DNA of 64,000 nt. Source: Sediminicoccus rosea. Its GTDB lineage: Bacteria; Pseudomonadota; Alphaproteobacteria; Acetobacterales; Acetobacteraceae. The stretch's first letter is position 1, and every line of letters begins with the position of its first letter. This document shows, one piece after another, positions 11,561 through 34,176 of the stretch. The translations under genes and the position numbers were made by a program. Below the pieces are notes generated by a model. The model saw only the letters and a list, made by a program, of their open reading frames with translations, was not told the origin of the DNA and did no database searches. Location: contig NZ_CP137852.1 in assembly GCF_033547095.1 (NCBI RefSeq), positions 2,473,501-2,537,500 of the forward strand, written 5' to 3'.

Positions 11561-11622
11561 GGAGGTGCAGGAACCTGAGGTTCCTGCCGGGATGCTCGAA
11601 GGGCGGAGCCCTTCGAGCATCC
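11561..11622 (-). repeat. Two-hairpin intergenic repeat, copy 1
   Basis: Hairpin A has arms GCAGGAACC (11567-11575) and GGTTCCTGC (11579-11587). Hairpin B has 15-bp arms GGATGCTCGAAGGGC (11590-11604) and GCCCTTCGAGCATCC (11608-11622) with a 3-base loop. Hairpin A and its flank GGAGGT...CGGG recur exactly, in the opposite orientation, at 34089-34115. Read on the minus strand the order is GC-rich hairpin, short linker, second hairpin, ACCTCC, as in the other copies of this family. Confidence 0.75.
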
Positions 11623-11632
11623 CTCAGTGGCT

Positions 11633-12040
11633 TTAGGCCAAGACGAAGACGGGAACGGGCGCCCCATCGCCTTCGGTCGCGCGGAACTTCACCTTCACCT
11701 TCTGTCCAACCTTCAGCGCGTCGAGGTCGCACTCGACGATGTTGGTCAGCATGGTGGGGCCTTCGGCCAGCGTCACATAGGCGACGCAGAAGGGTTCCTT
11801 CCCGCGCGCCACGCTGTAGCTGTAGATCACGCCGTCGCCCGAGGCTTCCACGAACTCGACATTGTTCGAGAGCGTGAAGGGCGAGACATGCCGCGGGTAG
11901 TGGAAGAGCTTGCCGGTATCCAGGCACTTGCCGAGGATCAGCTTGCCCGCGCGGCAGCCGTCGAAATAGACCTTGTTGTCCGGGCTCTCGGCCGGGGCCG
12001 CGGGGGTGCGGTCAAAGGACATGGTGGCCATGGTGATCAC
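11633..12040 (-). CDS. DUF35 OB-fold protein, acyl-CoA-associated partner of the thiolase-like protein
   Basis: 135 residues from GTG 12040, or 129 from an internal ATG at 12022. The N-terminal rubredoxin-like segment (YFDGCRAGKLILGKCLDTGKLFHYPRHVSPF) is followed by an OB-fold (VIYSYSVARGKEPFCVAYVTLAEGPTMLTNIVECDLDALKVGQKVKVKF). Stand-alone DUF35 proteins bind acyl-CoA chains and form obligate complexes with thiolase-superfamily enzymes, as in steroid side-chain cleavage (ChsH2/Ltp2). The GTGA overlap with the upstream thiolase-like gene fits a stoichiometric complex. Only some of the zinc-ribbon cysteines are present. Confidence 0.85.
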   Translation of the reverse strand: MITMATMSFDRTPAAPAESPDNKVYFDGCRAGKLILGKCLDTGKLFHYPRHVSPFTLSNNVEFVEASGDGVIYSYSVARGKEPFCVAYVTLAEGPTMLTNIVECDLDALKVGQKVKVKFRATEGDGAPVPVFVLA

Positions 12041-13203
12041 TCCCGCTCCAGGATGACGGTGCCGCAGCCATGCCGCGAACCGAGGTTGCCGCCCTTGCCG
12101 TTGGCGAGGACGAGATCGGCGTTCTTCACCTGCACGGCGGGGTGGGCTTCGCCGCGCGCCTGGCGCACCGCCTCGATCACCTTGGTCATGCCGCCGCGGT
12201 TGCTCGGGTGGTTGTTGCAGAGGCCGCCGCCATCCGTGTTGAAGGGCAGCTTGCCGACGCCCGAGATCAGGTTGCCATCGGCCACGAACTTGCCGCCCTG
12301 GCCCTTCTCGCAGAAGCCGAGATCCTCGATCTGCACGACGACGCTGATGGTGAAGCTGTCATAGATCGAGGCGTACTTGATGTCGGAAGGCTTCACGCCG
12401 GCCTTGTTGAAGGCCATCGGGCCCGACATCTTCGTGGCGGAGTAGGTGAGGTCGATCCCGCCGGCATTCTGGTGCTTGTAGGCCTCGCCCCAGCCCTTCA
12501 CGCCGACCTTCGGGCGGTTGAGCGTGCGCGCGATTTCCGGCCGGGCGATGATCAGCGCGCCGCCGCCATCGGAGATGACGCAGCAGTCGAGGCGATGCAG
12601 CGGATCGGCCACCATGGGCGAATTCACCACGTCTTCCACGGTGACGACCTTGGGCAGCATCGCATGCGGGTTGTGCTGCGCATGGTGCGAGGCCGCGACC
12701 TTCACCCAGGCGAGCTGCTCGCTCGTCGTGCCGAACTCATACATGTGCCGCATGGCGACGTTGGCGTGCATCGTCGCGATGGTGCGGCCATAGGGCAGCT
12801 CGAAGCTCTCATCGGGCACGCCGACGCCGGCGGAGCGCACGGCGGTGCCGGTCTGCATGCCCTCGGCGCGCGGGCGGCCGGCCAGTGTGATCAGCGCCAC
12901 GTTGCACTTGCCTGCGATGATGGCTTCCACCGCATGGCCGACATGGATGACGTAGGAGGAGCCGCCGCTTTCCGTCGTGTCGTAGTGGCGCAGCTTGTTG
13001 AGGCCCATGTAGTCGATCATGGACAGGCCACCCATGCCGGGCGCATCGCCCGCGCAGAAATAGCCATCAATGTCGGCGGCGGTCAGGCCGGCATCCTGCA
13101 GCGCGCCGTAGGCGACCTCGGCATGCAGCTGCGCGGTGGATTTCGTCTCGGCCTTGCGCGTCGGGTGCTCGAAAGCGCCCACGATGTAGGCGGGATTCTT
13201 CAT
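12037..13203 (-). CDS. Thiolase-superfamily protein (SCP2/Ltp2-like), nucleophilic Cys absent
   Basis: 388 residues of thiolase fold, from MKNPAYIVGAFEHPTRKAE to GNLGSRHGCGTVILERE. At the canonical nucleophile site (C-x-S-G) the sequence reads T77-E-S-G-G-S-S, so the acylated cysteine is missing. The C-terminal GGGLCNNHPSNRGG keeps the active-site His. Losing the Cys while pairing with a DUF35 protein is the hallmark of Ltp2-type retro-aldolases and related SCP2-like proteins rather than true thiolases. It likely acts on a CoA thioester, perhaps in side-chain cleavage; the substrate is unknown. It is the first gene of a two-gene unit. Confidence 0.85.
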   Translation of the reverse strand: MKNPAYIVGAFEHPTRKAETKSTAQLHAEVAYGALQDAGLTAADIDGYFCAGDAPGMGGLSMIDYMGLNKLRHYDTTESGGSSYVIHVGHAVEAIIAGKCNVALITLAGRPRAEGMQTGTAVRSAGVGVPDESFELPYGRTIATMHANVAMRHMYEFGTTSEQLAWVKVAASHHAQHNPHAMLPKVVTVEDVVNSPMVADPLHRLDCCVISDGGGALIIARPEIARTLNRPKVGVKGWGEAYKHQNAGGIDLTYSATKMSGPMAFNKAGVKPSDIKYASIYDSFTISVVVQIEDLGFCEKGQGGKFVADGNLISGVGKLPFNTDGGGLCNNHPSNRGGMTKVIEAVRQARGEAHPAVQVKNADLVLANGKGGNLGSRHGCGTVILERE

Positions 13204-13316
13204 GGGGCTCGGTGCCCTTTCCTGGCGATCATCGCATCCTCCCGGATGAGTGGTCCGCTGCCTTGTGGCGCGGCGGGAAGAGCCTCGCTTCCATGCCGCA
13301 TTCCGTCAACCTCGCC

Positions 13317-14318
13317 TCAGCCGAGATTGAGCCGCCGCGCGAGGTCCCGATAGAGCGCGATCTGCGCCTCCACCATCGCGCGCATGGCTGCCCCGTCCAG
13401 GTAGCGCGGCACGCTGCCGGTGCGGCGCGTGGCGGCGAGCCATTCGGCATCCTGCGTCGTCGCCCGCGCCACGCGGCCCCAGAATTCCAGCACGGGGGGC
13501 GGCAGGTTGGCGGGGCCGGCCAGCGCATTCCAGCCGGCGAGTTGCGAGAGGGCGGGCAGCCCCGCCTCGGCCGCGGTGGGCACGCCGGGCAGGCTCGGCA
13601 GGCGCGCATCGCCGCTCACCACCAGCGCGCGCACCTGGCCCTGCTGGATGGCGCCCAGCATGTCGCCCAGGTTGTTGCCGACGAATTGCGCGTGCCCCCC
13701 CAAGAGCGCCGTCAGCGCCTCGCCGCCGCCGCGGAAGGGCAGCGCCTGGGCGGCGTCGATCGGCAGGTTGGCGCTGGCCAGCATGTGCCGGATGCCGAGG
13801 TCGAGGATGGTGGCGGGCCCGCTGGTCGCGAAGTTCAGCGTCCCGGGCGCGGCGCGGATCGCCGCCAGCAGCGCGGCCAGGTCACGCCAGGGCGCATCGG
13901 CGCGCACGCAGATGACGAAAGGGTTCTCGTCCAGCAGCGCGAGCCAGGTGAAATCCTCGACGCTGTAGGGCGTGCGCGGATCGGTCGCCGGCAGGATGGC
14001 AGAGGAGCCGACGCGGGCCAGCAGCAGGGTCTGCCCGTCCGGCTTGGCGCGCGCCACGTATTGCGTGCCGATGGCGCCCGAGGCCCCGGTGCGGTTCTCG
14101 ACCACGATGGGCTGCGCGGGCTGGCCCATGTGCCGCACCGCATGGGCCGCGAAGAGCCGGGCCGCGATGTCGGCCGCGCCGCCGGCCGAGAAGGGGGCCA
14201 CCAGCGTCACCGGCCGGTCGAGGACGGAAGCCGTCCCTTGGCCCGCCCCCGGGCCCACCCCTTGCGCCATGGCCGGCGCCGCGAGGCAGGTGAGCATGAG
14301 GGTCCGACGTGCGATCAT
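13317..14318 (-). CDS. Bug/TctC-family substrate-binding protein
   Basis: 333 residues with a signal peptide (MIARRTLMLTCLAAPAMAQG). Family blocks are RPVTLVAPFSAGGAADIAAR, VVENRTGASGAIGTQYVA, PDGQTLLL, LNFATSGPATILDLGIRHML and VPTAAEAGLPAL. It is a periplasmic carboxylate-binding protein, and no membrane components are adjacent. It lies between the thiolase operon and a divergent transglycosylase, so it may be transcribed alone. The ligand cannot be inferred. Confidence 0.92.
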   Translation of the reverse strand: MIARRTLMLTCLAAPAMAQGVGPGAGQGTASVLDRPVTLVAPFSAGGAADIAARLFAAHAVRHMGQPAQPIVVENRTGASGAIGTQYVARAKPDGQTLLLARVGSSAILPATDPRTPYSVEDFTWLALLDENPFVICVRADAPWRDLAALLAAIRAAPGTLNFATSGPATILDLGIRHMLASANLPIDAAQALPFRGGGEALTALLGGHAQFVGNNLGDMLGAIQQGQVRALVVSGDARLPSLPGVPTAAEAGLPALSQLAGWNALAGPANLPPPVLEFWGRVARATTQDAEWLAATRRTGSVPRYLDGAAMRAMVEAQIALYRDLARRLNLG

Positions 14319-14423
14319 TGGGGGTTCTTGCCTCCCGGTTCGTGACTGGCCTGGGGGGCAGCATGCCCGGGATCGGACGGCAAGGGTTGCCCTTTCGCTT
14401 CACGCCATGCTACCGCGTGTTGC

Positions 14424-15392
14424 ATGTTAACCAAGACTGGCCTGCCCAGGGGGGCGAGCGCACGCTCCGCGCCCCGGCACCCACCACTGGTTCGCGCGCC
14501 GCACCGCTTCGTGCAGCGTGGATCCTTCCCCCGGGGAAGCCTTCGTGGCCTCGCTCTCAGTGCCTTCACGGCCTGGGTGCTGGGCGCGCTGACCTGGGGC
14601 CTGCCCGGGACCGCGCGCGCCACCGAAGCCCGTCCCCAGGCGGCAAGCCGGCCGGCCGCCTCGGCCCCGGCGCGCCCCCAAGCGGCCCGGCCTGCCGCCA
14701 ATACCGCCGCCCGCCCGAGCGCCAACCAGGGCGCCCGGCGGCCCGCCCATACCCGCACGGCCCAGCGCGCGCGCCCGCCGGCCGGCACCACTCGCATGCG
14801 CGACGCCCCGCAGGAGCTGATCCCGGTCCTCGCCGCCGACATGCCGACCGGCACCGCCCAGCTCTCGCCCCGCGCCGCCTGCCTCCAGGCCACCCAGCGC
14901 GCCGAGCAGGTGCACGGCCTGCCCACCGGCCTGCTGACCGCCGTCGCGCTCGCCGAGAGTGGCCTGCATGCCTATGCCCTCTCCATCGGCGGCCGGGCCC
15001 ATTTCCCGCCGACGGAGGAAGCCGCCCGCCAGCTGGTGAACAGCGCGCCACCCCGGCGCAGCATCATGGCGGGCTGCGTGCAGGTGAATGCCCGCGTCCA
15101 TGCCCGGAACTCGCATTGGCCGCTCAACCCCGATGCCTCGGCCGACTGGGCCGGCGGCATGATGGCCCGCTGGGCGCGCGAGACGGGCAGCTGGTCCACC
15201 GCGCTGCGCCGCTGGCATGGCGGCAGCCCGGCCTCGACCCAGCGCCTGGTGTGCCGGGTGAAGGCCAAGATGGAAGTCACGAGCCCGGGCAGCGACATCT
15301 TCGAGGATTGGAACTGCGCCACGGGCCTCGCCGACCGCACGCGGCGCAATGGCGAGATCCACCTCGCCACCGCCCAGCGCCAGACGCAGTAG
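14424..15392 (+). CDS. Lytic transglycosylase (SLT-domain) protein
   Basis: 322 residues. A long N-terminal region contains a hydrophobic export segment (about 41-66, LRGLALSAFTAWVLGALTWGLPGTARA) and a Pro/Ala/Arg-rich linker (about 67-125). The SLT-like domain has the catalytic glutamate E178 in LLTAVALAESGLHAYAL and the later GCVQVNARVHARN and WSTALRRWHGG motifs. Such enzymes cleave peptidoglycan with formation of 1,6-anhydromuramic ends, often serving secretion or flagellar machines. The stop codon falls inside a 13-bp tandem repeat. The start could lie further downstream, nearer the hydrophobic segment. Confidence 0.78.
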   Translation: MLTKTGLPRGASARSAPRHPPLVRAPHRFVQRGSFPRGSLRGLALSAFTAWVLGALTWGLPGTARATEARPQAASRPAASAPARPQAARPAANTAARPSANQGARRPAHTRTAQRARPPAGTTRMRDAPQELIPVLAADMPTGTAQLSPRAACLQATQRAEQVHGLPTGLLTAVALAESGLHAYALSIGGRAHFPPTEEAARQLVNSAPPRRSIMAGCVQVNARVHARNSHWPLNPDASADWAGGMMARWARETGSWSTALRRWHGGSPASTQRLVCRVKAKMEVTSPGSDIFEDWNCATGLADRTRRNGEIHLATAQRQTQ

Positions 15393-15428
15393 CCGGACGC
15401 AGTAGCCGGACGCGGCAGCCGCACGCAG
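15383..15428. repeat. 13-bp tandem repeat overlapping a stop codon
   Basis: Two exact copies of GACGCAGTAGCCG (15383-15395, 15396-15408), a third with two changes (15409-15421) and a half copy (15422-15428). The TAG stop of the transglycosylase gene (15390-15392) is in the first unit. Because 13 is not a multiple of three, slippage would usually leave the first stop intact and change only the trailer. Confidence 0.75.
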
Positions 15429-15448
15429 GACCCGCGGTGCGGTGGGGG

Positions 15449-16324
15449 CTATTCCTTCACCGCGCCGGTCAGGCTGCTCACATAGTAATCCACGAAGAAC
15501 GAGTAGAAGATCGCGACCGGCAGCGAGCCGAGCAGCGAACCCGCCATCAGCGCCCCCCATTGATACACGTCACCCGTCACAAGCTCCGTCAGGATGGCGA
15601 CCGGAACCGTCTTGTTCTCGCTGCTCTGGATGAAGGCGAGCGCGTAGATGAACTCGTTCCAGCTCAGGGTGAAGGAGAAGATGCCCGCGCTGATCAGGCC
15701 GGGCACCGCCAGCGGCAGCGTGATCTGCCGCAGGATCTGCAGGCGCGTCGCGCCATCGATCAGCGCGCATTCCTCCAGCTCATACGGGATGGACTTGAAG
15801 TAGCCGATCAGCAGCCAGGTGCAGAAGGGCACGAGGAAGGTCGGATAGACCAGGATCAGCGCCATCGGGCTGTCGAACAGGCCGAGCTGCACCACCATCG
15901 TCGCCAGCGGGATGAAGAGGATGGAGGGCGGCACGAGATAGGCCAGGTAGATCGCCAGGCCCACATACTGGCTGCCCCGGAAGCGCAGGCGCTGGATCGC
16001 ATAGGCGGCCAGCGTGCTGGCGAAGAGCGACAGGAAGGTCGCCCCCACCGACACCATCATCGTTGTCCACAGCCAGGACGGGTAGGAGGTCTCGAACAGC
16101 AGCTTGCGGATGTGCTGCAAGGTGGGCGAGGTGATCCAGAACGGGTTGTGCGTCGCGAAGTCATACAGCTCCGCATCCGGTTTGAAGGCCGTCACCGTCA
16201 TCCAGTAGAACGGGAAGAGCAGGATCAGCAGGAAGCAGGACAGCGGGATCCAGAGCACCACCATGCGGCGTGCGCGGCTGTCCCACTGCATCGTCTCCGG
16301 CGCTGCGGTCGAAGCATTGCTCAT
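15449..16324 (-). CDS. Sugar-type ABC transporter permease (MalG/UgpE-like)
   Basis: 291 residues from the ATG at 16324 (MSNASTAAPETMQWDSRARR); a longer frame would run through the upstream repeat region. Six transmembrane helices and the cytoplasmic EAA loop EECALIDGATRLQILRQITLPLAVPG, which docks on the ATPase, are clear. This is the second permease of a CUT1-type importer, translocating a sugar or polyol-like solute inward. It is the last gene of the operon and is separated from the first permease by 237 bases filled with hairpin repeats. Confidence 0.92.
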   Translation of the reverse strand: MSNASTAAPETMQWDSRARRMVVLWIPLSCFLLILLFPFYWMTVTAFKPDAELYDFATHNPFWITSPTLQHIRKLLFETSYPSWLWTTMMVSVGATFLSLFASTLAAYAIQRLRFRGSQYVGLAIYLAYLVPPSILFIPLATMVVQLGLFDSPMALILVYPTFLVPFCTWLLIGYFKSIPYELEECALIDGATRLQILRQITLPLAVPGLISAGIFSFTLSWNEFIYALAFIQSSENKTVPVAILTELVTGDVYQWGALMAGSLLGSLPVAIFYSFFVDYYVSSLTGAVKE

Positions 16325-16358
16325 GGCGTAGGCCCTGTGACGAGATGAGGCGCGGGTT

Positions 16359-16438
16359 GCGAGGGGCGCTGCCCCTCGCGCTCCCCGCCGAGGGCCCAGG
16401 CCCTCGGAACCCATGTGATGGGATTTCGGGAGAGGGGC
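16359..16438 (+). repeat. Two-hairpin intergenic repeat, copy 2
   Basis: Hairpin 1 has arms GCGAGGGGC and GCCCCTCGC (16359-16379, loop GCT). After a CCCC linker, hairpin 2 has arms CCGAGGGCC and GGCCCTCGG (16388-16407, loop CA), then AACCCATG and the tail ATGGGAT...GGGAGAGGGGC (16418-16438). The tail pairs with the inverted copy 3 at 16471-16491. Stem sequences differ from the copies at 23.3 and 34.1 kb, but the architecture is the same. Confidence 0.75.
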
Positions 16439-16470
16439 AGAATGGGGCTTTGGGCCCGGAGCGCGCATCG

Positions 16471-16545
16471 GCCCCTCTCCCAAGATCCCATGATCGGTTT
16501 CCAAAGGCCCCGGCCTTTGGTGGGGTGCAGGGGCAAAGCCCCTGC
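16471..16545 (-). repeat. Two-hairpin intergenic repeat, copy 3 (inverted to copy 2)
   Basis: On the minus strand: hairpin 1 with arms GCAGGGGC and GCCCCTGC (16527-16545, loop TTT), an ACCCC linker, hairpin 2 with arms CCAAAGGCC and GGCCTTTGG (16501-16520), then AAACCGAT and the tail that mirrors copy 2. Copies 2 and 3 face each other, giving a long interrupted inverted repeat (16418-16438 against 16471-16491) between two permease genes of one operon. Confidence 0.75.
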
Positions 16546-16561
16546 GAAGCAGCGCCCCATC

Positions 16562-17518: not shown

Positions 17519-17583
17519 CAGGGCAACTCCCGGGGGTCAGGCTCCACGCGGCGGCTGCCGCGTGGAGTTCGCTGGGTTTGGGC

Positions 17584-18915: not shown

Positions 18916-18951
18916 TTTCGTTTCTCTCCCTTGGTGGTGTTGAGCGAGCCG

Positions 18952-19997
<1,046 letters not shown>

Positions 19998-21942: not shown

Positions 21943-23310
21943 ATGATCCCCACCATCGCCGAAGCCGCGGGCCTGATCGCCGCGAAGAAGCTCTCGCCCG
22001 TGGAACTCATGAAGGAGTGCGAGTCGCGCATCGCCGCCCAGAACGGTGCGCTGCACGCCTTCATCCTGGAGACACCCGAGCGCGCGCTCGCCGATGCCAA
22101 GGCGGCCGAGGCGCGCCAGATGGCCGGCACGCTCAAGGGCAGGCTCGACGGCATCCCCATCGGCCACAAGGACATCTACTCGACGGCCGGCATCCGCACG
22201 ACCTGCCATTCCGCACAGCTGCTCGACAATGTGCCGAGCGAGGACGCCGTCACCGTCGCCAAGTGGCGCGATGCGGGCGTGGTGCTGATGGGCAAGCTCG
22301 CCACCCATGAATTCGCCTTTGGCGGGCCGAGCTTCGACCTGCCCTGGCCGCCGGCGCGCAACCCCTGGAACACGGAGTGCTTCACCTCCGGCTCCAGCAG
22401 CGGCACGGGGGCGGCGGTGGCCGCGGGGCTCGTGCTGGGCGGCACGGGTTCCGACACGGGCGGCTCCATCCGCGGGCCGGCCGCGCTCTGCGGCATCGCC
22501 GGCATCAAGCCGACCTATGGGCTCTGCTCGCGCACCGGCATCTATCCGCTGGCGCAGACGCTGGACCATGCCGGCCCCATGGCCTGGACCAGCGAGGATT
22601 GCGCCATCCTTCTCGAAGCCATGGCGGGCCACGACCCGAGCGACCCCGGCAGCGCCGACCGCCCGGCTCCGCGCTTCGACCTGGCGCAGGATTGGCGCGG
22701 CCGCCGCGTCGGGCTGATCCGCCACATGCATGAGGTGGACAATCCGGTCAGCGCAGCGACGCTGAAGGGCATCAACGAGACGGCCGAAATCCTGCGCAAG
22801 CTGGGCGCCACCGTGGTGGATGTCACGCTGCCTTCGCTGCAGGAATTCAACGCGGCGGGCTGGGTCACGCTCTCGGGCGAGGCCTGGGCGGTGCATGAGG
22901 AGTGGATGCGCAGCCAGCCGCTGAAATACGGCGAATTCCTGCGCGGACGCCTGGCGCTGGGTGGCCTGCTCTCGGCGGGCGACTACATCCAGGCGCAGCG
23001 CCAGCGGCGCGACCTCATCGCGCGCAGCATCGCGGCCGCGGCCGATGTGGACCTGCTGCTCACCGCCGCCGCGCCCGGCGAGGCGCCCAAGATCCGCGAG
23101 GTGCCGAAATGGGCGAGCCTCGAGAAGCCCAACTTCACCATCGCCTTCAACCTTCTGGGCTGGCCGGCGCTGACCATCTGCACGGGCTTCGGCGAGGGCG
23201 GGCTGCCGGTGGCCGCGCAGATCATCGGCAAGCCCTGGCAGGATGGGCTGGTGCTGGCGGCGGGCCATGCGGTGGAGCGGGAGAACGGCGCCCGCGCGAA
23301 GCGGCCCTGA
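21943..23310 (+). CDS. Amidase-signature hydrolase (AtzE/GatA-like)
   Basis: 455 residues from ATG 21943; a GTG at 21937 overlapping the upstream stop is an alternative. The Ser-cisSer-Lys triad of the amidase signature family is visible: K76 in IPIGHKDIYSTAG, the cis-Ser near 152 in GSSSGTGAAVAAG, and the nucleophile S175 in GSDTGGSIRGPA. The family hydrolyses amides, carbamates or carboxybiuret-like compounds. With the AtzG-like gene it forms a two-gene unit, divergent from the ThDP enzyme-ABC operon. The substrate is unknown; cyanurate pathway neighbours such as AtzD or AtzF are not present. Confidence 0.9.
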   Translation: MIPTIAEAAGLIAAKKLSPVELMKECESRIAAQNGALHAFILETPERALADAKAAEARQMAGTLKGRLDGIPIGHKDIYSTAGIRTTCHSAQLLDNVPSEDAVTVAKWRDAGVVLMGKLATHEFAFGGPSFDLPWPPARNPWNTECFTSGSSSGTGAAVAAGLVLGGTGSDTGGSIRGPAALCGIAGIKPTYGLCSRTGIYPLAQTLDHAGPMAWTSEDCAILLEAMAGHDPSDPGSADRPAPRFDLAQDWRGRRVGLIRHMHEVDNPVSAATLKGINETAEILRKLGATVVDVTLPSLQEFNAAGWVTLSGEAWAVHEEWMRSQPLKYGEFLRGRLALGGLLSAGDYIQAQRQRRDLIARSIAAAADVDLLLTAAAPGEAPKIREVPKWASLEKPNFTIAFNLLGWPALTICTGFGEGGLPVAAQIIGKPWQDGLVLAAGHAVERENGARAKRP

Positions 23311-23316
23311 TCAGCG

Positions 23317-23385
23317 AGGGGGCCTTGCCCCCTGGCGCTCCCCCAGCAGGGAACAAGTCCCCTGCACCCCGCGTGTCGGAGGTGC
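23317..23385 (+). repeat. Two-hairpin intergenic repeat, copy 4
   Basis: Hairpin 1 has arms AGGGGGC and GCCCCCT (23317-23333, loop CTT). After a linker ending CCCCCA, hairpin 2 has arms GCAGGG and CCCTGC (23346-23365), then ACCCCG and the conserved block TCGGAGGTGC (23376-23385), which also flanks copy 5 at 34 kb. It lies between the amidase stop and the FAD oxidase start. Confidence 0.7.
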
Positions 23386-23440
23386 GGGCAACGGGTGAAG
23401 ACCACGCAGGTTTTCACCCTGCTGGGGAGGTTGAGGGGCG

Positions 23441-24583
23441 ATGTCCCTCAAGAGGAGACCGGAGTTGGAACGCAGCTACGACCTGATCGTCATCGGCCAT
23501 GGCATCGTCGGCCTTGCCCACGCCCTGGCCGCCGCCCGCGCCGGGCACCGCGTGGCGGTGCTGGACCGGGATGCGCAGCCCAATGGCGCCTCCATCCGCA
23601 ATTTCGGCTTCGTCACCGTCACCGGCCAGGGCTGGCCGCACACCTGGCGCCGCGCCCGCCGCGCGCGCGCGGTCTGGGCGGGCGTGGCGGAGGAGGCCGG
23701 CATCCCCGTGCTGCAACGCGGCCTGCTGATGGCCGCGCGCCGGCCCGAGGCGCTGGCGGTCATCGAGGAATTCGCGGCGGGACCGATGGGCGAGGGCTGC
23801 CGCATCCTCCGCCCCGATGAGATGCCGGCGCCCCTCGCGCCCGGCCTGATGGGCGCGCTGCATTCGCCGCACGAACTCCGCGTGGAAAGCCGCGAGGCGT
23901 TGCCCCGGCTGCGCGCCTGGCTGGCCGAACGCCATGGCGTCGCGATCTTCCCGCAATGCGCGGCGCTCTCGGTCGAGACAGGCGCGGTGCATACGCCACA
24001 GGGCCGCTTCACCGCGCCCCACATCGTGGTGTGTCCAGGGACGGACCTCACTTCCCTCTTCCCCGAGGCCTTCGCCGCCCGCCGGACCACGCTGTGCAAG
24101 CTGCACATGTTGCGCCTGGCGGATCCCGGCTGGCGGCTGCCCGCGCCGGTGATGAGCGACCTCGGCCTGCATCGCTACCGCGGCTATCACGGCGCCCCCT
24201 CGCTGCCCGCGCTGCGCGCGCGGCTGGAGGCGGAGCAGAAGCCGCAGCTCGACAACGGCGTGCACCTGATCGTCGTGCAATCGGCCGATGGCAGCCTCGT
24301 CGTGGGCGACAGCCATCACTACGCGGCCACGCCCGACCCCTTCCAGCCGGAAGCCGTGGATGCGCTGATCCTGGAGGAATTCGCCGCCGTGCTGGGCGCG
24401 CCGCCGCCGGTGACGGAACGCTGGATCGGCATCTACCCCTCCGGCCCCGAGGATGCCTTCTTCGAGGCGCCCATGCCCGGCGTGCGGCTCGTCTCCGTCA
24501 CCTCCGGCACCGGCGCCTCCACGGCCTTCGGCCTCGCCGAGGAGGTTCTCGCGGATCTGATGCAGATGGAGTTTTCCGAATGA
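23441..24583 (+). CDS. FAD-dependent amine oxidase (DAO family, aminophosphonate-associated)
   Basis: 380 residues. The N-terminal FAD dinucleotide fold is LIVIGHGIVGLAHALAAARAGHRVAVLDRD, and GASIRNFGFVTVTGQG matches the TIGR03364-like DAO clade that recurs beside phosphonatase genes. The start is supported by a GAGGGG ribosome site. It overlaps phnX by four bases (ATGA). A likely job is oxidative deamination of 2-aminoethylphosphonate or its N-methyl or hydroxy derivative to phosphonoacetaldehyde (or its hydroxy analogue), releasing amine and H2O2. That role follows from the family and neighbour, not from active-site proof. No phosphonate transporter or PhnW transaminase is present. Confidence 0.82.
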   Translation: MSLKRRPELERSYDLIVIGHGIVGLAHALAAARAGHRVAVLDRDAQPNGASIRNFGFVTVTGQGWPHTWRRARRARAVWAGVAEEAGIPVLQRGLLMAARRPEALAVIEEFAAGPMGEGCRILRPDEMPAPLAPGLMGALHSPHELRVESREALPRLRAWLAERHGVAIFPQCAALSVETGAVHTPQGRFTAPHIVVCPGTDLTSLFPEAFAARRTTLCKLHMLRLADPGWRLPAPVMSDLGLHRYRGYHGAPSLPALRARLEAEQKPQLDNGVHLIVVQSADGSLVVGDSHHYAATPDPFQPEAVDALILEEFAAVLGAPPPVTERWIGIYPSGPEDAFFEAPMPGVRLVSVTSGTGASTAFGLAEEVLADLMQMEFSE

Positions 24584-27341: not shown

Positions 27342-27429
27342 GAACGGGCCTCCATCTTGGGGAAAGCCAGCGTGGCATCCGCCGCACCCGGCTTGCAAGG
27401 CCGCCGGGAGGGGTTATGCCGGACAGGCG

Positions 27430-28278: not shown

Positions 28279-28290
28279 GGGGCCCGCTGA

Positions 28291-28320
28291 TGCAACGCTG
28301 GCGCCAGCGCCAGCGTTGCA
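28291..28320. repeat. Perfect 12-bp inverted repeat between pdxY and the AI-2E transporter
   Basis: Arms TGCAACGCTGGC (28291-28302) and GCCAGCGTTGCA (28309-28320) with a 6-base loop GCCAGC. It begins 12 bases after the pdxY stop and ends 4 bases before the AI-2E ATG, covering the place where a ribosome site should be. There is no T-tract for intrinsic termination. Confidence 0.8.
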
Positions 28321-28324
28321 TGGC

Positions 28325-29365: not shown

Positions 29366-29366
29366 G

Positions 29367-30392
29367 TCAGATCACCGCCACGCCCAGCAGCGCCAGCAGC
29401 GTGATGAAGAGCGTGCTGGCCACGCCCAGCAGCAGCGGCGCCGCCCCCCGCGCATGCAGCGCCCGCAGGTCGGTCTGCAGGCCCAGCGCCGCGACCGAGG
29501 CCGCCAGCATGATGGGCACCACGAAGCGCGAGGCCTCCACCACCGCCTTGGGGACAAGGCCCGTGCTGCCGATGACGACCAGCGCCAGGAAGCCGAAGGC
29601 GAACCAGGGCACGGGCGCCTTGGCGTGCCCGGCCTCGCCCATGTGGCTCTTCGCCACCCACCAGCCGAGCGCCACGACGGCCGGCGCCAGCAGGAAGACG
29701 CGGGCGAGCTTCATGACGGTGCCGGTCTGCGCCGCCTCCGGCCCGCCGGCGGCCGCGGCGCCCACCGCCTGCACCACCTCATGGATCGCGGCCCCGGCCC
29801 AGAGGCCGTAGGTGTTGGCCGACATGCCCATGAGGTCGCCCAGATAGGGGAAGGTGATCAGCGCGACGGTGCCGCAGAGCGTGATGACGGCGAGCGCATA
29901 GGTCACGTCCTCATCCTTGCCGCGCGCCACCTGGTTGGCCGCGACGATGGCGGATGCGCCGCAGATCGCCGTGCCGGTGCCGATCAGCAGCGAAAGCTTC
30001 GGGTCCACGCCCATGACGCGGCCGAGCCAGATGGTGAAGGGCAGCGTCAGCCCCACCACCAGGAAGGCGAGCACCAGCGCGCCCAGGCCGAGCGAGGCCA
30101 GCATGCCGAGCGTGACCTGGAAGCCCAGCAACACGATGGCGGCACGCAGCACAGGCCGCACCGCATAGCTGATGCCGGGCTTGAGGCTGGCTGGCCGGCC
30201 GATCACCGCGCCGAGTCCCACGCCCAGCACCAGCGCCACCACCACCGGGTTCAAGGCCGCGATGCCGGTCATGTTGCGGATGATGATGGCGATGGCCGCG
30301 ATCACCAGGCAGAGGCCGAGGCCAGGGGCCAGGCTGCGCAGCCGGTCCGGAAAGGATTGGGCGGCGCTGGGTGCGCTGGTCGGGGCTGCCAT
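29367..30392 (-). CDS. YeiH-family putative sulfate/sulfonate exporter
   Basis: 341 residues from ATG 30392; a TTG at 30404 is an alternative start. About ten transmembrane helices; family blocks are GLGAVIGRPASLKPGISYAVRPVLRAAIVLLGFQVTL, GTGTAICGASAIVA and WAGAAIHEVVQAVGAA. The E. coli YeiH homologue is uncharacterised; members near taurine genes have been proposed as sulfate exporters. No such genes are adjacent here. Confidence 0.92.
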   Translation of the reverse strand: MAAPTSAPSAAQSFPDRLRSLAPGLGLCLVIAAIAIIIRNMTGIAALNPVVVALVLGVGLGAVIGRPASLKPGISYAVRPVLRAAIVLLGFQVTLGMLASLGLGALVLAFLVVGLTLPFTIWLGRVMGVDPKLSLLIGTGTAICGASAIVAANQVARGKDEDVTYALAVITLCGTVALITFPYLGDLMGMSANTYGLWAGAAIHEVVQAVGAAAAGGPEAAQTGTVMKLARVFLLAPAVVALGWWVAKSHMGEAGHAKAPVPWFAFGFLALVVIGSTGLVPKAVVEASRFVVPIMLAASVAALGLQTDLRALHARGAAPLLLGVASTLFITLLALLGVAVI

Positions 30393-30464
30393 GGATGCTC
30401 GCAATCAAGTCTGACTAGGATCGCCAGACGGTCCACCCGCAGGCGCGCAGCGTCAACCCATGGG

Positions 30465-31496
30465 CTATTCGGCAGCGAGCGGCATGGGTTGCGTGAGCCC
30501 GAAGGCCTCGGCCAGCAATGTCACGCTGCGGGCGCGGGCGGCCGCGTCATGGCAGGGCGTGAGCACCGCCACTTCCTGCACGCCAAGCTCGGCAGCGAGC
30601 GCCGCCAGCCGGTCCCGCACCTGCTCGCCCGTGCCGATGATGGCCGTGGCCCGCATGCGTTCGATTCGCGCGCGCTCGGCTTCGGAATAGGGGTGGGCCA
30701 GCGCCTCCTCGGCGGTCGGGAAGGGGGGGAAGCTGCCGCGGTCGCGGTGCAGGCGCCAAAGGGCGCGGGGCGCAAAGAGGCGCTCGGCCTCCGCCACCGT
30801 ATCGGCCGCCAGCGCATAGACGGCGACGGCGGCGTTGGGCGGCTGGCCGCGCATGTCGCGATACCCCTCGCGATACATGTGCAGCGCCTCGGCGGCACCG
30901 CGCCCGTCGGTGATGAAGTGGGCGAAGCAGTAGGGAAGGCCGAAGAAGGCCGCGACCTGCGCGCCATAGTCGCTGGAGCCCAGCACCCAGACCTCGGGCG
31001 CCGTCGCCACCTCGGGGCTGGCGCGCACCTCCCGGAAGGGGTGGTTCTCGGGCAGGCCATCGCCGAGCCAGCCCAGCAGGTCGCGCAATTGCGCGGGGAA
31101 GTGGTCGGCGGCGCTGGCGGCGTTGGGGTTGAGCGCATAGGCGGTACGCCCGTCACTGCCCGGCGCGCGGCCGAGACCGAGGTCGATGCGGCCGGGCGCG
31201 ATGGCTTCCAGCGCGCGGAACTGCTCGGCCACCTTCAACGCGGAATAATGCGGCAGCATGACGCCCGCGCTGCCGACGCGGATGCGCCGCGTGGTGGCGG
31301 CGATGGCGCTGATCAGGATCTCGGGCGCGCTGCCCGCATGGCTCTGGCTGTTGTGGTGCTCGGCCAGCCAGTAGCGGGCATAGCCCAGCCGGTCGGCCAG
31401 CTGCGCGATGGCCAGGCTCTCCTGGATCGCCTCGGCCGGGCCCTTGCCGGAGACGATGGTGGATTGATCGAGGATGGACAGCGCTGGCAAGGTCAT
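30465..31496 (-). CDS. LLM-class flavin-dependent monooxygenase (MsnO8-like)
   Basis: 343 residues, a luciferase-like TIM barrel. LSILDQSTIVSGKGPAEAIQESLAIAQLADRLGYARYWLAEHHN is the MsnO8-type N-terminus, with VGSAGVMLPHYSALKVAEQFRALEAIAPGRIDLGLGRAPGSD following and WVLGSSDYGAQVAA as the FMN-phosphate region. It uses reduced FMN and O2 to oxidise an unknown substrate. It is divergent from the deaminase gene, with 30 bases between starts. Confidence 0.92.
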   Translation of the reverse strand: MTLPALSILDQSTIVSGKGPAEAIQESLAIAQLADRLGYARYWLAEHHNSQSHAGSAPEILISAIAATTRRIRVGSAGVMLPHYSALKVAEQFRALEAIAPGRIDLGLGRAPGSDGRTAYALNPNAASAADHFPAQLRDLLGWLGDGLPENHPFREVRASPEVATAPEVWVLGSSDYGAQVAAFFGLPYCFAHFITDGRGAAEALHMYREGYRDMRGQPPNAAVAVYALAADTVAEAERLFAPRALWRLHRDRGSFPPFPTAEEALAHPYSEAERARIERMRATAIIGTGEQVRDRLAALAAELGVQEVAVLTPCHDAAARARSVTLLAEAFGLTQPMPLAAE

Positions 31497-31526
31497 GCCC
31501 GGAGCTTACCGGCAGCAGGGGATTGC

Positions 31527-31991
31527 ATGGAAGAGACGTTCCTTCGCCGCGCCTTCGCGCTGGCCTGCCAGGGTGTCGCCGAGGGCGGCGGACCCTTTGG
31601 CGCGGTCGTGGTCAAGGATGGCGCCATCATCGGCGAGGGGCGCAACAATGTCGTTCCCGGGCGCGATCCGACGCAGCATGCCGAGGTGGTGGCGATCCGT
31701 GCCGCCTGCGCGGCGCTGGGCACGCATGACCTGAGCGGGGCCGTCCTCTACACGAGCTGTGAGCCCTGCCCGATGTGCCTCTCCGCCACCTGGTGGGCGC
31801 GCATCGGCGAGATCGTCTATGGCAATGACCGTGCGGATGCGGCGGCGATCGGCTTCGACGACGCCGCGATCTACGAGGAGGTGGCCCGCCCCCTGGAAGC
31901 CCGCGCCCTGCCCATCCGCCGCCTGCTGGCGAGCGAGGCGCTGGAGGCCTTCCGCCTCTGGGAGGCTAAACCGGACAAGGTGCCCTACTGA
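31527..31991 (+). CDS. Nucleoside/guanine deaminase-like protein
   Basis: 154 residues, cytidine-deaminase fold. The zinc site is H51 with catalytic E53 (QHAEVVA), and C81 and C84 (TSCEPCPMCLSA). ATWWARIGEIVYGNDRADAAAIGFDD and the C-terminal LWEAKPDKVPY match the small guanine deaminases of the GuaD type, which convert guanine to xanthine with release of ammonia. A related tRNA or cytosine deaminase role is less likely. It converges with upp, another nucleobase-salvage gene. Confidence 0.85.
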   Translation: MEETFLRRAFALACQGVAEGGGPFGAVVVKDGAIIGEGRNNVVPGRDPTQHAEVVAIRAACAALGTHDLSGAVLYTSCEPCPMCLSATWWARIGEIVYGNDRADAAAIGFDDAAIYEEVARPLEARALPIRRLLASEALEAFRLWEAKPDKVPY

Positions 31992-32036
31992 CGCCGACCC
32001 GGACCCGAGGAGCCAGCTGCCGGAGGCCCTTTCCCC

Positions 32037-32678
32037 TCACTCCGTCCCGAAGCACCGATCCCCGGCATCCCCCAGGCCCGGGACGATGTAGCCATGCTCG
32101 TTGAGCCGCTCATCCAGCGCGCCGGCCAGGATGGCGACATCCGGATGCGCCGCCTGGAGTGCGGCAACCCCCTCCGGGGCGGCCACCACGCAGGCGAAGC
32201 GCACGACCTTGGCGCCGGCCTGCTTCACGCGATGGATGGCCTGGATGGCCGAGCCGCCGGTGGCCAGCATCGGGTCCAGCACCAGGGCGCCCCGACGGGC
32301 CAGGTCCTTGGGCAGGCGCACCACATATTCGCTGGGGGTCAAGGTCTGCTCGTCCCGGACCAGGCCAAGATGGCCGACGGGCGCGTCGGGCAGCACCATG
32401 CGCGCACCCTCCAGCAGGCCGAGCCCGGCGCGCAGGATGGCGACGAGGCAGGGCTCCATCTGCGTCAGCACCGGCGCCTCCATCCGGCTCACCGGCGTCT
32501 CGATGGCGGCGGTGGTCTCGGGCAGGTCACGCAGGGCTTCGCTCGCCAGGATGGCGCCGATCTCGGCGAGGACACGGCGGAAGGTGGCGCTGTCCGTCTC
32601 CTGCCGGCGGATGCGGGTGATCTTGGCGCGCAGCAGCGCGTGGCGGGGCGTGTGGAAATTGGCGCGGGTCTGGCTCAT
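32037..32678 (-). CDS. upp: Uracil phosphoribosyltransferase
   Basis: 213 residues, the usual length. It makes UMP from uracil and PRPP. The PRPP-binding motif LVLDPMLATGGSAIQAI, the uracil-binding tail GYIVPGLGDAGDRCFGTE and ILRAGLGLLEGA near 85 are all intact. It follows the OmpA-like gene by 55 bases on the same strand. Confidence 0.97.
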   Translation of the reverse strand: MSQTRANFHTPRHALLRAKITRIRRQETDSATFRRVLAEIGAILASEALRDLPETTAAIETPVSRMEAPVLTQMEPCLVAILRAGLGLLEGARMVLPDAPVGHLGLVRDEQTLTPSEYVVRLPKDLARRGALVLDPMLATGGSAIQAIHRVKQAGAKVVRFACVVAAPEGVAALQAAHPDVAILAGALDERLNEHGYIVPGLGDAGDRCFGTE

Positions 32679-32733
32679 GGCGCGGGCTTACCCGCCCGCC
32701 GCGCCGCGTTCAATCCAGGGTTCAGCCCTGGCT

Positions 32734-33183
32734 TCAGCGGGGGGCGGTCGGGCTCAGCACATCCACGGCGTCTCGCCCGCTCGGCGTGCGGCCGAGGGCG
32801 CGGATATCCACCCGGTTCTCCGCGAGGCCGCCCGCCACGAGCGCCGCCTTCACCGCCCGCGCGCGCGCGAGGGTGAGCCGGCGATGGCTGGAGAGGTCCT
32901 CGCCGCCGCTCGCCTCGCTGTTGAGCAGGATGCGGCCGATGCTGCTGGCCTGGAGCGCGGCCCCCAGCCGTTCCAGCGCGGCGCGCTGCTCGGCCTCCAG
33001 CGTGTCGCGCTCGGCGGGGAAGGCGACGCGCCAGATGCCCTGCGGCAGCGCCGTGATGCCGCGGGGCAGGTTCAGCGGCGGCATGGGCGGCAGCGCCACG
33101 GGGGGCGTGGCGGGCGTGCCCAGCGGTTGCGCCAGGGCCGGCAGGGGCAGAAGAAGCGCGAGGAAGAGCCGCCGGCGGGGCAT
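32734..33183 (-). CDS. OmpA-like periplasmic protein
   Basis: 149 residues. A signal peptide (MPRRRLFLALLLPLPALAQ) is followed by a short Pro-rich stretch and a partial OmpA/MotB-type domain (ILLNSEASGGEDLSSHRRLTLARARAVKAALVAGGLAENRVDIRALGRT). The usual NxxLSxxRA peptidoglycan-contact pattern is relaxed to SSHRRLTLARA, so peptidoglycan binding is uncertain. Its ATG overlaps the suhB stop (TGATG), so it is co-expressed with that enzyme, a combination for which I know no function. Confidence 0.75.
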   Translation of the reverse strand: MPRRRLFLALLLPLPALAQPLGTPATPPVALPPMPPLNLPRGITALPQGIWRVAFPAERDTLEAEQRAALERLGAALQASSIGRILLNSEASGGEDLSSHRRLTLARARAVKAALVAGGLAENRVDIRALGRTPSGRDAVDVLSPTAPR

Positions 33184-34046
33184 CAGCCGGCCTCGGCGCG
33201 GCCCTTGGCTGCGCCCTGGGCGGCGGCGGCGATGCTCTCGGCCACCACCTCGCGCAGCTTGCCATGCAGGTGCTGGTTGCCGGCCACCACATGCCCCTCG
33301 GCATAGGGATCGCCGCCATCGGGCGCGGTGACGATGCCGCCCGCCTCGCGCAGCAGCACGAGGCCCGCCGCGATGTCCCACTTGTTGAGGCCAAGCTCCC
33401 AGAAGCCGTCATACCGGCCGGCCGCGGTCCAGGCGAGGTCGAGCGCCGCCGAGCCGAAGCGGCGGATGCCCGAGACCTGCGGCATGAGCCGCACCAGCGT
33501 ATGGGTGAATTCCGCCTTGCGCGGGATGGCCGCGAAGGGAATGCCGGTGGCGAAGAGCGCCTCGCGCATGTCGCGCCGGCCGGAAACGCGCAGGCGCTTG
33601 TCGTTCAGGAAGGCGCCCATGCCCTTCTCGGCCCAGAAAAGCTCATCGGCGGCCGGGTTGTAGACCACGCCGGCCATGACCTCCGTCTTGTCCTCGGAGA
33701 TGCGCTTCTCGATGCCGACGCTGATGGCCCAGTGGGGGATGCCATGCAGGAAGTTGGTGGTGCCATCCAGCGGGTCCACCACCCAGCGCCATTCCCAGTC
33801 GGCATCGCCATGCGCGCCGCTTTCCTCCATCAGGAAGGCGAAGCCGGGGCGGGCCTTGGAGAGATCCTCGCGCAGGGATTGCTCGGCCCGCAGATCGGCC
33901 TGGCTGACGAAGTCGCCCGGGCCCTTCATCGAGACCTGGAGCTGCTCCACCTCGCCGAAATCGCGCAGCAGGCGCCGGCCGGCCTTGCGCACGGCGGAGA
34001 CGACGACGTTGAGGGCGGGGGAGAGGCGAGGGGACGAGCCCGACAT
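33183..34046 (-). CDS. suhB: Inositol-1-monophosphatase family protein
   Basis: 287 residues. The lithium-sensitive phosphatase motif WVVDPLDGTTNFLHGIPHWAISV supplies the metal-binding aspartates; the upstream FLMEESGAHG gives the metal Glu, and the C-terminal LNKWDIAAGLVLLREAGG gives the last Asp. It hydrolyses inositol phosphates and related sugar phosphates, and SuhB also acts in rRNA antitermination in enterobacteria. It sits downstream of efp, separated by a pair of hairpin repeats. Confidence 0.93.
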   Translation of the reverse strand: MSGSSPRLSPALNVVVSAVRKAGRRLLRDFGEVEQLQVSMKGPGDFVSQADLRAEQSLREDLSKARPGFAFLMEESGAHGDADWEWRWVVDPLDGTTNFLHGIPHWAISVGIEKRISEDKTEVMAGVVYNPAADELFWAEKGMGAFLNDKRLRVSGRRDMREALFATGIPFAAIPRKAEFTHTLVRLMPQVSGIRRFGSAALDLAWTAAGRYDGFWELGLNKWDIAAGLVLLREAGGIVTAPDGGDPYAEGHVVAGNQHLHGKLREVVAESIAAAAQGAAKGRAEAG

Positions 34047-34063
34047 TGGATTTCCTTTGAAGG

Positions 34064-34119
34064 CCAGGGGCTCTGCCCCTGGACCCCGGCAGGAACCTCA
34101 GGTTCCTGCACCTCCGATA
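34064..34119 (+). repeat. Two-hairpin intergenic repeat, copy 5
   Basis: Hairpin 1 has arms CCAGGGGC and GCCCCTGG (34064-34082, loop TCT), linker ACCCCG, hairpin 2 arms GCAGGAACC and GGTTCCTGC (34089-34109, loop TCA), then ACCTCCGAT. The second hairpin and flanks are identical to copy 1 at 11.6 kb in reverse orientation. It faces copy 6. Confidence 0.78.
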
Positions 34120-34121
34120 AA

Positions 34122-34176
34122 CATGGGTGCAGGGAACTGGTTCCCTGCTGGGGGTTTAAGGGGGCAAAGCCCCCTT
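34122..34176 (-). repeat. Two-hairpin intergenic repeat, copy 6 (inverted to copy 5)
   Basis: On the minus strand: hairpin 1 with arms AAGGGGGC and GCCCCCTT (34158-34176, loop TTT), linker ACCCCCA, hairpin 2 with arms GCAGGGAAC and GTTCCCTGC (34129-34148), then ACCCATG. Hairpin 1 overlaps the efp stop codon by two bases and could serve as its terminator, though the run of T after it is short. Confidence 0.78.

What the first reader, a model, noticed from the sequence alone, without database searches (positions are those of the whole stretch)
11561..34176. Dispersed two-hairpin repeat family with compensatory stem changes
Six units at four intergenic sites (11561-11622, 16359-16438, 16471-16545, 23317-23385, 34064-34119, 34122-34176) share one architecture: a GC-rich hairpin with a 3-base loop, a short C-rich linker, a second perfect hairpin, and a trailing ACC-type block (ACCCATG in two copies). 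Hairpin 2 arms are GCAGGGAAC/GTTCCCTGC, GCAGGAACC/GGTTCCTGC, CCGAGGGCC/GGCCCTCGG or CCAAAGGCC/GGCCTTTGG: the primary sequence changes but pairing is kept. That pattern suggests selection for structure (RNA or cruciform) or a mobile REP/BIME-like element. I know no described family of this layout.
Basis: seen in the sequence. Interest (0 to 1): 0.72.

Follow-up and report, generated by a model that had tools for sequence, protein, structure and literature searches.

The report
Triplex-coded double-hairpin intergenic repeats
A family of intergenic repeats in acetic-acid-bacteria relatives carries two hairpins per unit, and each hairpin is followed by a short block that changes in step with its stem in the way expected of a three-stranded DNA fold, which gives a testable case for DNA triplexes being kept by evolution.

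Summary
In detail: the six units are real and belong to a dispersed family (47 covariance-model hits at 37 sites in this genome; matches in 130 of 200 genomes of its family). REP/BIME membership fails: no constant tag, and no Y1 (RAYT-type) transposase in 24 of 25 same-family genomes. Arm G gives block C, arm A gives T or A, in parallel register. On the other strand these are the purine-motif triads G.G-C, A.A-T and T.A-T, so each hairpin plus block is a class I intrastrand-triplex motif. The rule survives collapse to 16 stem cores (60 of 76 purine positions; 0 of 20,000 shuffles) and holds in a later set; 664 control hairpins lack it. Closest known kind: BoxC/TM-ECO triplex repeats (PMC4666352). 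None of 37 sites lies between divergent genes, and relatives differ by presence and inversion. Triplex formation, function and route of spread are inferred, not shown.

The parts
11559..11623 (-). Unit F: H1 = 11589-11623 (16-bp stem, so its triad block GCATCCC overlaps the long stem), H2 = 11567-11587, block ACCTCCAT = 11559-11566
   Evidence: 67.5 bits; lies between genes 11214-11546(-) and 11633-12040(-)
16359..16416 (+). Unit C: H1 16359-16379, block GCTCCCCG 16380-16387, H2 16388-16407, block AACCCATGT 16408-16416
   Evidence: 61.5 bits
16417..16491 (.). Interior of inverted pair C/D, itself an imperfect inverted repeat (GGGAGAGGGGC...GCCCCTCTCCC); the inner part or the whole element is inverted between species at this site
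16492..16545 (-). Unit D: H1 16527-16545, block ACCCCA 16521-16526, H2 16501-16520, block AAACCGATC 16492-16500
   Evidence: 55.1 bits; C/D lies between two ABC-permease genes of one strand
23315..23372 (+). Unit E: H1, block CGCTCCCCC, H2 23346-23365 (imperfect), block ACCCCGCGT
   Evidence: 55.8 bits; between amidase 21943-23310(+) and DAO-type oxidoreductase 23465-24583(+)
23376..23451 (-). Unit E', inverted partner of E, with an extra hairpin nested in H2
   Evidence: (27.1 bits); a like nested hairpin in several G006 copies
34063..34117 (+). Unit A: H1 34064-34082, block ACCCC, H2 34089-34109, block ACCTCCGA
   Evidence: 68.1 bits
34121..34177 (-). Unit B: H1 34157-34177 (contains the TAA stop of EF-P), block AACCCCC, H2 34129-34148, block ACCCATGT
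   Evidence: 70.8 bits; A/B lies between EF-P 34175-34744(-) and inositol monophosphatase 33183-34046(-)

Best explanation
Each unit is two tandem copies of one module: a hairpin with a purine-rich 5' arm, followed after a short foot by a block that mirrors its own 3' arm. On the complementary, G-rich strand the module reads purine block - short loop - purine arm - loop - pyrimidine arm, which is the order of a class I (purine-motif) intrastrand triplex with G.G-C, A.A-T and T.A-T triads. I think evolution keeps this three-strand fold. When the G-rich strand becomes single-stranded (replication, transcription bubble or an ssDNA intermediate) the hairpin forms and the purine block folds back antiparallel into its major groove, locking it. 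Shown: the family, the hairpin covariation, the block-stem covariation with the purine-motif triad set, inverted pairing, location at gene 3' ends, presence/absence and inversion between relatives. Inferred: that the triplex forms in cells; that it pauses polymerases and promotes template switching and inversion; that spread runs through folded single-stranded DNA without a RAYT-type enzyme.
For: H2: 174 of 197 parsed units usable (183 of the 197 sequences are distinct). One row per distinct 9-nt arm (32 arms): 139 of 158 purine positions make purine-motif triads against 94.6 (sd 5.5) shuffled, 0 of 5000; over the 55 distinct arm+block combinations the block above arm A at positions 1-3 is A 23, T 26, C 5, G 3, and above arm G at positions 0-3 C 105 of 114. 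Plain-complement score by register (32 arms): offset 2 gives 97 against 60.1; offsets 0, 1, 3 give 34, 57, 64 against 37.8, 51.4, 52.0. H1 (95 distinct), positions 5-9 from the apex only: 236 against 139.6 (sd 8.6), 0 of 5000. Later set (60 regions of 24 genomes, 17 genera; 67 hits, 62 parsed): 22 arms 99 of 109 triads against 76.6 (sd 3.85), 0 of 5000; at positions 1-3 over A T 12 + A 4 (16 of 16), over G C 50 of 50; the 11 arms not seen before 49 of 54, 1 of 5000. Collapsed to 16 stem cores: 60 of 76 purine positions, 0 of 20,000; the 10 cores seen at least twice 44 of 50 positions, 0 of 20,000. Control: 664 hairpins of the own genome make 561 triads against 551.0 (sd 16.5), 286 of 1000; by plain complement 856 against 835.5, 178 of 1000. 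The loop joining third strand and arm in H1 is most often 3 nt (48 of the 103 combinations with a run of at least 4 triads), the length in TM-ECO (PMC4666352). At the orthologous amidase site stem and block changed together: four G / four C in G006, five / five in G015. At the permease site the inner part or whole element is inverted between species.
Against: No physical evidence of a triplex. PMC4666352 itself found no stable triplex of TM-ECO in vivo by DMS and duplex when the complement is present. H2 triad runs are mostly 4-5 nt (76 of 104 distinct), below the 6-nt stems used in that paper; in H1 61 of 125 combinations within the length limits reach 6, and 22 of 125 fall below 4. At block position 4 the rule weakens (over A: A 3, C 10, G 2, T 15). 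At the H1 foot, arm C is followed by block G in 24 of 45 cases, a plain complement that the purine motif does not explain. Other registers are not all silent: H2 offset 3 is reached by 3 of 1000 shuffles, H1 shift 2 by 6 of 2000, one of three antiparallel H1 registers by 0 of 1000 (327 against 305.4), and control hairpins show weak excess at registers 0 and 3 (12 and 14 of 1000); all are far smaller effects. Units are related by descent, so shuffle counts are not strict probabilities. R1 prefers ACC/CCCC tags. No strand split along the G006 chromosome was seen (222 of 300 shuffles reach the observed value), so no link to leading or lagging strand. Function is untested.
Confidence: 0.62

Rival explanations
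1. REP/BIME elements: hairpins with a tag beside the foot, moved in trans by a Y1 (RAYT-type) transposase.
For: Size, intergenic location, inverted doublets and high copy number resemble REPs/REPINs (PMC3686654 and PMC8266576, passages read). That REPs are rare between divergent genes is recalled.
Against: No constant GT(A/G)G tag: the tag varies with the stem. PF01797 absent from 24 of 25 same-family genomes, with controls ringing; the one genome with it has 1 element.
Confidence: 0.07
2. A single-strand mobile element whose cleavage block is chosen by base pairing with a guide in its own hairpin, as in IS200/IS605, run by an enzyme that PF01797 does not detect.
For: It would explain why each variant keeps its own matching block. 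Inverted pairs can enclose cargo ORFs. Near-identical copies sit at unrelated places, and G023 has a 250-bp version with at least 40 near-full-length copies scored out of 263 candidates.
Against: In IS608 the guide lies 5' of the hairpin and pairs A+16:T-3, A+17:T-4, i.e. antiparallel, with triplets (PMC5934647, passages); here the partner lies inside the stem in parallel register. No candidate enzyme was found; the GIY-YIG cargo is full-length in 1 of 120 genomes searched. No clear excess of direct repeats flanking 32 G023 copies.
Confidence: 0.13
3. RNA elements: 3'-UTR double hairpins that end transcription or protect mRNA 3' ends.
For: 0 of 37 own-genome sites and 0 of 31 G023 sites are divergent. 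Own-genome background: 48 of 418 gaps divergent (Fisher p 0.023), or 43 of 161 gaps of at least 60 bp (p 8e-5, but biased because the element lengthens its own gap). Convergent gaps are enriched, 17 of 37 against 50 of 418 (p 1.6e-6). H1 often starts within a few bases of a stop codon.
Against: No U-tract is seen after the units. In co-directional single sites H1 faces the upstream gene's end in only 7 of 11. The A-to-A changes suit the DNA purine motif, which PMC4666352 says does not form in RNA. Several pairs lie between genes of one apparent operon.
Confidence: 0.12
4. No selection: stems stay matched because template switching at quasi-palindromes copies one arm onto the other.
For: Inversions and partial loss at orthologous sites suggest that such events happen.
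Against: Templated copying makes inverted or direct copies, not the mirror relation between a 3' arm and the block after it.
Confidence: 0.06

Closest known systems
BoxC / PIT / TM-ECO intrastrand-triplex repeats of enterobacteria (Holder et al. 2015, PMC4666352, about half read)
   Same: Short intergenic G/C-rich repeats of three co-linear blocks able to fold into a purine-motif triplex on one strand; often as inverted pairs (five sites in E. coli); variable between close relatives (abstract); not found with transposons, phages or plasmids there.
   Different: Class II order (Y-R-R) there, class I on the G-rich strand (R-R-Y) here; one highly conserved consensus there, 16 stem cores whose blocks change in step here; two motifs in tandem per unit; shorter triad runs in H2; other lineage; occasional cargo. 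Class II/IV sites in the window: 0.
REP / REPIN / BIME elements with RAYT (TnpA-REP)
   Same: Palindromic intergenic repeats with a tag beside the hairpin foot, inverted doublets, tens to hundreds of copies.
   Different: Constant GTAG-type tag and Y1 transposase there; variable stem-coded tag and no Y1 enzyme here.
CGTC-tagged palindromic repeats of alphaproteobacteria (PMC3733652, passages read)
   Same: Alphaproteobacterial short palindromes with a tag at one end.
   Different: CGTC tag; that paper states they are missing in Acetobacteraceae.
IS200/IS605 ends (IS608)
   Same: Hairpin plus a nearby block recognised through base pairs and triplets (PMC5934647, passages).
   Different: Guide lies 5' of the hairpin and pairing is different; TnpA is required, and no PF01797 match exists here.

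Membership tests
Intrastrand-triplex repeats, class I (class III on the other strand) | Three co-linear blocks: reverse-Hoogsteen purine block, purine arm, pyrimidine arm | tested here: met
Intrastrand-triplex repeats, class I (class III on the other strand) | G.G-C, A.A-T or T.A-T triads | tested here: met
   139 of 158 purine positions; 99 of 109 in the later set; 60 of 76 over 16 cores; far above shuffles, not perfect
Intrastrand-triplex repeats, class I (class III on the other strand) | Stem of 6-15 triads and loops of 1-6 nt (search rule of PMC4666352) | tested here: inconclusive
   H1: 61 of 125 distinct combinations within length limits (30 of 155 outside) have contiguous runs of 6-8; of the 103 with runs of at least 4, 101 have a connecting loop of 1-6 nt. 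H2: 11 of 104 reach 6 contiguous triads, 76 have 4-5
Intrastrand-triplex repeats, class I (class III on the other strand) | The oligonucleotide folds into a triplex (CD/NMR) | not testable with these tools
   needs bench work
BoxC / TM-ECO | Consensus CCCTCNCCC-N(3-6)-GGGNGAGGG-N3-GGGNGAGGG, class II order | tested here: not met
   0 class II/IV sites in the window with 5- or 6-nt stems; unit sequences differ
REP/RAYT | Constant GT(A/G)G tetranucleotide 5' of the hairpin foot | tested here: not met
   tag varies with the stem
REP/RAYT | Y1 transposase gene in the genome | tested here: not met
   PF01797: 0 in own genome; 1 of 25 same-family genomes
MITE of a DDE transposase | Target-site duplication next to the ends | tested here: inconclusive
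   32 G023 copies: shared 5-mers 18 against 16.9 shuffled, 7-mers 3 against 1.2; ends are uncertain
Described RNA family (Rfam 15) | Match at gathering score | tested here: not met
   only a tRNA in the window; on six element loci, with E up to 1, one 19-bit hit at L303 1102-1147, away from the unit

The most novel reading that the evidence does not exclude
These repeats are single-stranded mobile DNA whose identity signal is a DNA triple helix: the folded G-rich strand, with its own stem-matched third strand, is the substrate of an unrecognised non-Y1 copying or recombination system spread through Acetobacteraceae. They would be the first natural repeats in which base-triad covariation shows that a DNA triplex is under selection.
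Probability: 0.22. Interest if true: 0.88.

Novelty: new variant of a known kind. Interest (0 to 1): 0.7.

Why it matters
Whether intrastrand DNA triplexes matter in bacterial cells is open: TM-ECO folds in vitro but was not seen as a stable triplex in vivo (PMC4666352), and its highly conserved sequence offers little covariation (my inference). Here many sequence variants keep the third strand matched to the stem, with the A-to-A and A-to-T alternation that the purine motif allows. That is comparative evidence of the kind used for RNA helices, and it names variants for direct tests (block-only mutants). It also describes a repeat family widespread in Acetobacteraceae, mostly without a detectable Y1 transposase, that shows inversion, absence and cargo.

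Tried and rejected
RAYT/Y1 link: rejected. Rfam: nothing. A GIY-YIG cargo gene as mobiliser (L088, PF01541 22.8 bits against a cut-off of 22.6): full-length in 1 of 120 genomes, so cargo. Genes between units further apart in G006: DctM, DctQ and TctC transporters and one 202-aa ORF without a Pfam match, taken as ordinary. IS608-type guide code: compared with passages of PMC5934647 and PMC8266576, not the same pairing. Pyrimidine motif on the C-rich strand: fits fewer positions than the purine motif (97 against 139 of 158) because many A positions carry A. Antiparallel pairing: for H2 55, 46, 63, 54 against shuffled 46.7, 54.8, 58.1, 48.8; for H1 one of three registers exceeds shuffles. Replichore strand bias: none. 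Target-site duplications in G023: none clear. Clean empty sites: relatives lack the element at the permease site (gaps of 12-24 nt in 5 of 17 loci, 63 nt in a sixth), and at the amidase site in G009, G007 and G001 (16, 7, 8 nt; 7 of 21 loci measured), but flanks are too diverged for a base-exact boundary, and at the amidase site the absence in G009 looks like a loss. Part of the EF-P listing was cut from view; at EF-P loci I rely (R1 in 12 of 80 loci at E up to 0.05). My de novo unit finder was too loose for density (10 in the 400-kb sample against 6 in one Markov copy) and I did not use it for claims. Literature: a described family of this layout was not found in 10 searches of the held open-access library; subscription papers are not held. 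PMC6006769 was read in passages only. Rows dropped before counts: the six weakest of 53 in A2 and of 72 in A4; then 35 of the remaining 232 rows failed my hairpin parser or overlap test (197 kept), some units entering twice (183 distinct sequences); 5 of 67 (4 unparsed, 1 truncated). Limits: the genome search scores only part of its candidates (150 of 6040, 27 per genome), so copy numbers are lower bounds. The G006 stretches were chosen because they hold hits, so they say nothing about density. Gene contexts rest on my own gene caller, trained on this genome and also used on G023.
Full report
What is there. The window is G000:C1:2473501-2537500 of a 5.14-Mb, two-contig genome. Its genus is very probably Roseococcus (Acetobacteraceae): two relatives' contigs match named Roseococcus records by length (252,928 and 84,119 bases). 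The six units of the finding are present. Oriented alike they read hairpin 1 - C-rich block - hairpin 2 - ACC-type block. Sites 16359, 23315 and 34063 hold two units in inverted orientation with hairpin 1 outside; 11559 is single.

Family size. A covariance model from the six units (R1) has 47 matches at E up to 1 in the own genome (42 at E up to 0.01), at 37 sites, of which ten hold inverted pairs; only 150 of 6040 candidates were scored. Seven of the 47 lie in the window. Each of the 21 genus genomes searched has at least one match, and so do three of four other same-family genera tried (24 of 41 genomes in all; 0 of 16 genomes of other families of the class). In a draw of 200 genomes of the family, 130 match, in 70 of 102 genera (27 candidates scored per genome). 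G006 has at least 143. G023, of another genus, has 150 of 150 scored. There 27 aligned copies show one element of about 250 bp ending in a third, inverted hairpin with its own block, and the 40 scored of 263 candidates match it over most of its length.

Hairpin covariation. On the six units 91.1% of 90 cells pair and 7 of 15 pairs change on both sides. On 53 aligned units 94.1% pair, 11 of 15 pairs change on both sides, and no shuffle of 500 reaches the covariation score (the alignment was fitted to the model).

Block covariation. Listing arms and blocks showed that each block follows its own stem: AGGAAAC-ACCTTC, AAGAAAC-ATCTTC, AGGAACC-ACCTCC, AAGAACC-ATCTCC, AGGGAAC-ACCCAT, AGGGGAC-ACCCCT, AAAGGCC-AAACC, AAAGGAC-AATCC, AAGGGCC-AACCCC; for hairpin 1 AGGGGC-ACCCC, GAGGGGC-CTCCCC, GAGAGGGC-CTCTCCC, GGGAGGGC-CCCTCCC, GAAGGGC-CATCCC. 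The relation is parallel, so ordinary Watson-Crick pairing within the strand cannot explain it. For H2, one row per distinct arm, the plain complement scores 97 at register 2 against 60.1 after shuffling (0 of 5000); registers 0, 1 and 3 give 34, 57 and 64 against 37.8, 51.4 and 52.0. For H1, restricted to positions 5-9 from the apex, 236 against 139.6 (0 of 5000). A control set of 664 hairpins from 400 kb of the same genome gives 856 against 835.5 by complement (178 of 1000) and 561 against 551.0 by triads (286 of 1000), with a weak excess of complement at registers 0 and 3.

Why a triplex. Over the 55 distinct H2 arm+block combinations the block above arm G is C (105 of 114 at positions 0-3); above arm A at positions 1-3 it is A or T (23 and 26 of 57; C 5, G 3). 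On the other strand this is third-strand G over G-C, and A or T over A-T: the triads that PMC4666352 lists for the antiparallel purine motif. The pyrimidine motif on the C-rich strand allows only T and fits fewer positions (97 against 139 of 158). The order on the G-rich strand, purine block - purine arm - pyrimidine arm, is that paper's class I. The joining loop in H1 is most often 3 nt (48 of 103), as in TM-ECO. In a later set of 60 regions from 24 genomes (17 genera, two of them used before), 62 of 67 hits parsed; at positions 1-3 the block above A was T 12 and A 4, above G it was C 50 of 50, and the 11 arms not seen before gave 49 of 54 triads (1 of 5000). Collapsing everything to 16 stem cores leaves 60 of 76 purine positions as triads, 0 of 20,000 shuffles. 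An unbiased scan for this motif (5-nt stems) hits five of the six window units and gives 0 or 1 in 20 Markov copies; in single Markov copies of the other sets it gave 0 against 5 in the 400-kb sample and 3 against 51 in the selected G006 stretches.

Results against. At block position 4 the rule fades (over A: A 3, C 10, G 2, T 15). At the H1 foot arm C is followed by block G in 24 of 45 cases, which the purine motif does not predict. H2 triad runs are mostly 4-5 (76 of 104), shorter than the 6-nt minimum of PMC4666352; H1 reaches 6 in 61 of 125 and falls below 4 in 22 of 125. One antiparallel register of H1 exceeds shuffles (327 against 305.4), and so, slightly, do H2 register 3 and H1 shift 2. 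Shared ancestry inflates all shuffle tests, although the core-level test limits this. No physical evidence exists, and that paper found no stable triplex of TM-ECO in vivo.

Where they sit. With my own gene caller, 0 of 37 sites lie between divergent genes, 20 between co-directional and 17 between convergent genes (two of these with an overlapping gene call). Among all 418 gaps of the sample 48 are divergent and 50 convergent; Fisher p is 0.023 for divergent and 1.6e-6 for convergent. Nine of ten inverted pairs lie between co-directional genes. In G023, 21 sites are convergent, 10 co-directional, 0 divergent. The ends often lie within 20 bases of gene ends, so an element can fill the gap. Among 11 single co-directional sites the unit faces the upstream gene's end in 7, no clear orientation rule. 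G006 shows no strand split along its chromosome.

Dynamics. At the permease site, of 17 loci (own genome included) a full-length insert (gap 222-258) stands in seven, two of these differing strongly from the own one (L195, L197); gaps of 12-24 nt without it occur in five, 63 nt in one, and 72 nt with one leftover hairpin in G006; three could not be measured. G009 reads as the own element fully inverted; G019 and G005 have hairpins 2 swapped but hairpins 1 not. At the amidase site (7 of 21 loci measured) G000, G006 and G015 have the element, G017 one unit, and G009, G007 and G001 none. There G006 has GGGGC / GCTCCCC and G015 GGGGGC / GCTCCCCC, so stem and block changed together. In relatives, pairs sometimes enclose cargo: a GIY-YIG ORF (L088), a DUF6968 ORF (L281), an AT-rich stretch with a small ORF (L086) (the last seen by eye only).

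Mobiliser. I found no other enzyme. Flanks of 32 G023 copies show no clear target duplication.

Verdict. A real, abundant repeat family that works like the intrastrand-triplex repeats (BoxC/PIT/TM-ECO) but is not a member of BoxC: class, sequence and layout differ. Its special value is the triad covariation. I rate it a new variant of a known kind. How it spreads and what it does are open; my best guess is a DNA-level element whose folded G-rich strand drives its own rearrangement and copying and is tolerated at gene 3' ends.

Noticed in passing
L088:1501-2101; L281:7089-7554; L086:1501-1863: Inverted pairs of units enclose cargo: a GIY-YIG ORF, a DUF6968 ORF, and an AT-rich stretch with a small ORF seen by eye.
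   Followed up: partly
L297-L325, L348-L359 (genome G023): About 250-bp element; the 40 scored copies match over most of its length (86-93% identity apart from the query itself), with a conserved core of about 130 nt (GACTGC...GCAGTC and TGAGGTC...GACCTCA pairs) between the two-module end and a one-module inverted end. No Rfam match on the copies tried.
   Followed up: partly
window 23376-23451; L279:16295, L282:4166, L284:2040, L286:17279, L296:3461: A nested hairpin like GTGAAAACCTGCGTGGTTTTCAC sits in hairpin 2 of several copies in two genomes (and in L221, genome G015).
   Followed up: no
window 16417-16491: The interior of the C/D pair is a second inverted repeat (GGGAGAGGGGC...GCCCCTCTCCC); a similar stretch follows the own-genome copy at G000:C1:4280669.
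   Followed up: no
L099, L105 (genome G016): The only same-genus genome searched with Y1 transposases (3 PF01797 matches) has a single R1 match.
   Followed up: no
window 3046-3068, 17542-17567, 28290-28321: Isolated strong hairpins (10-14 bp) outside the family, possibly terminators.
   Followed up: no
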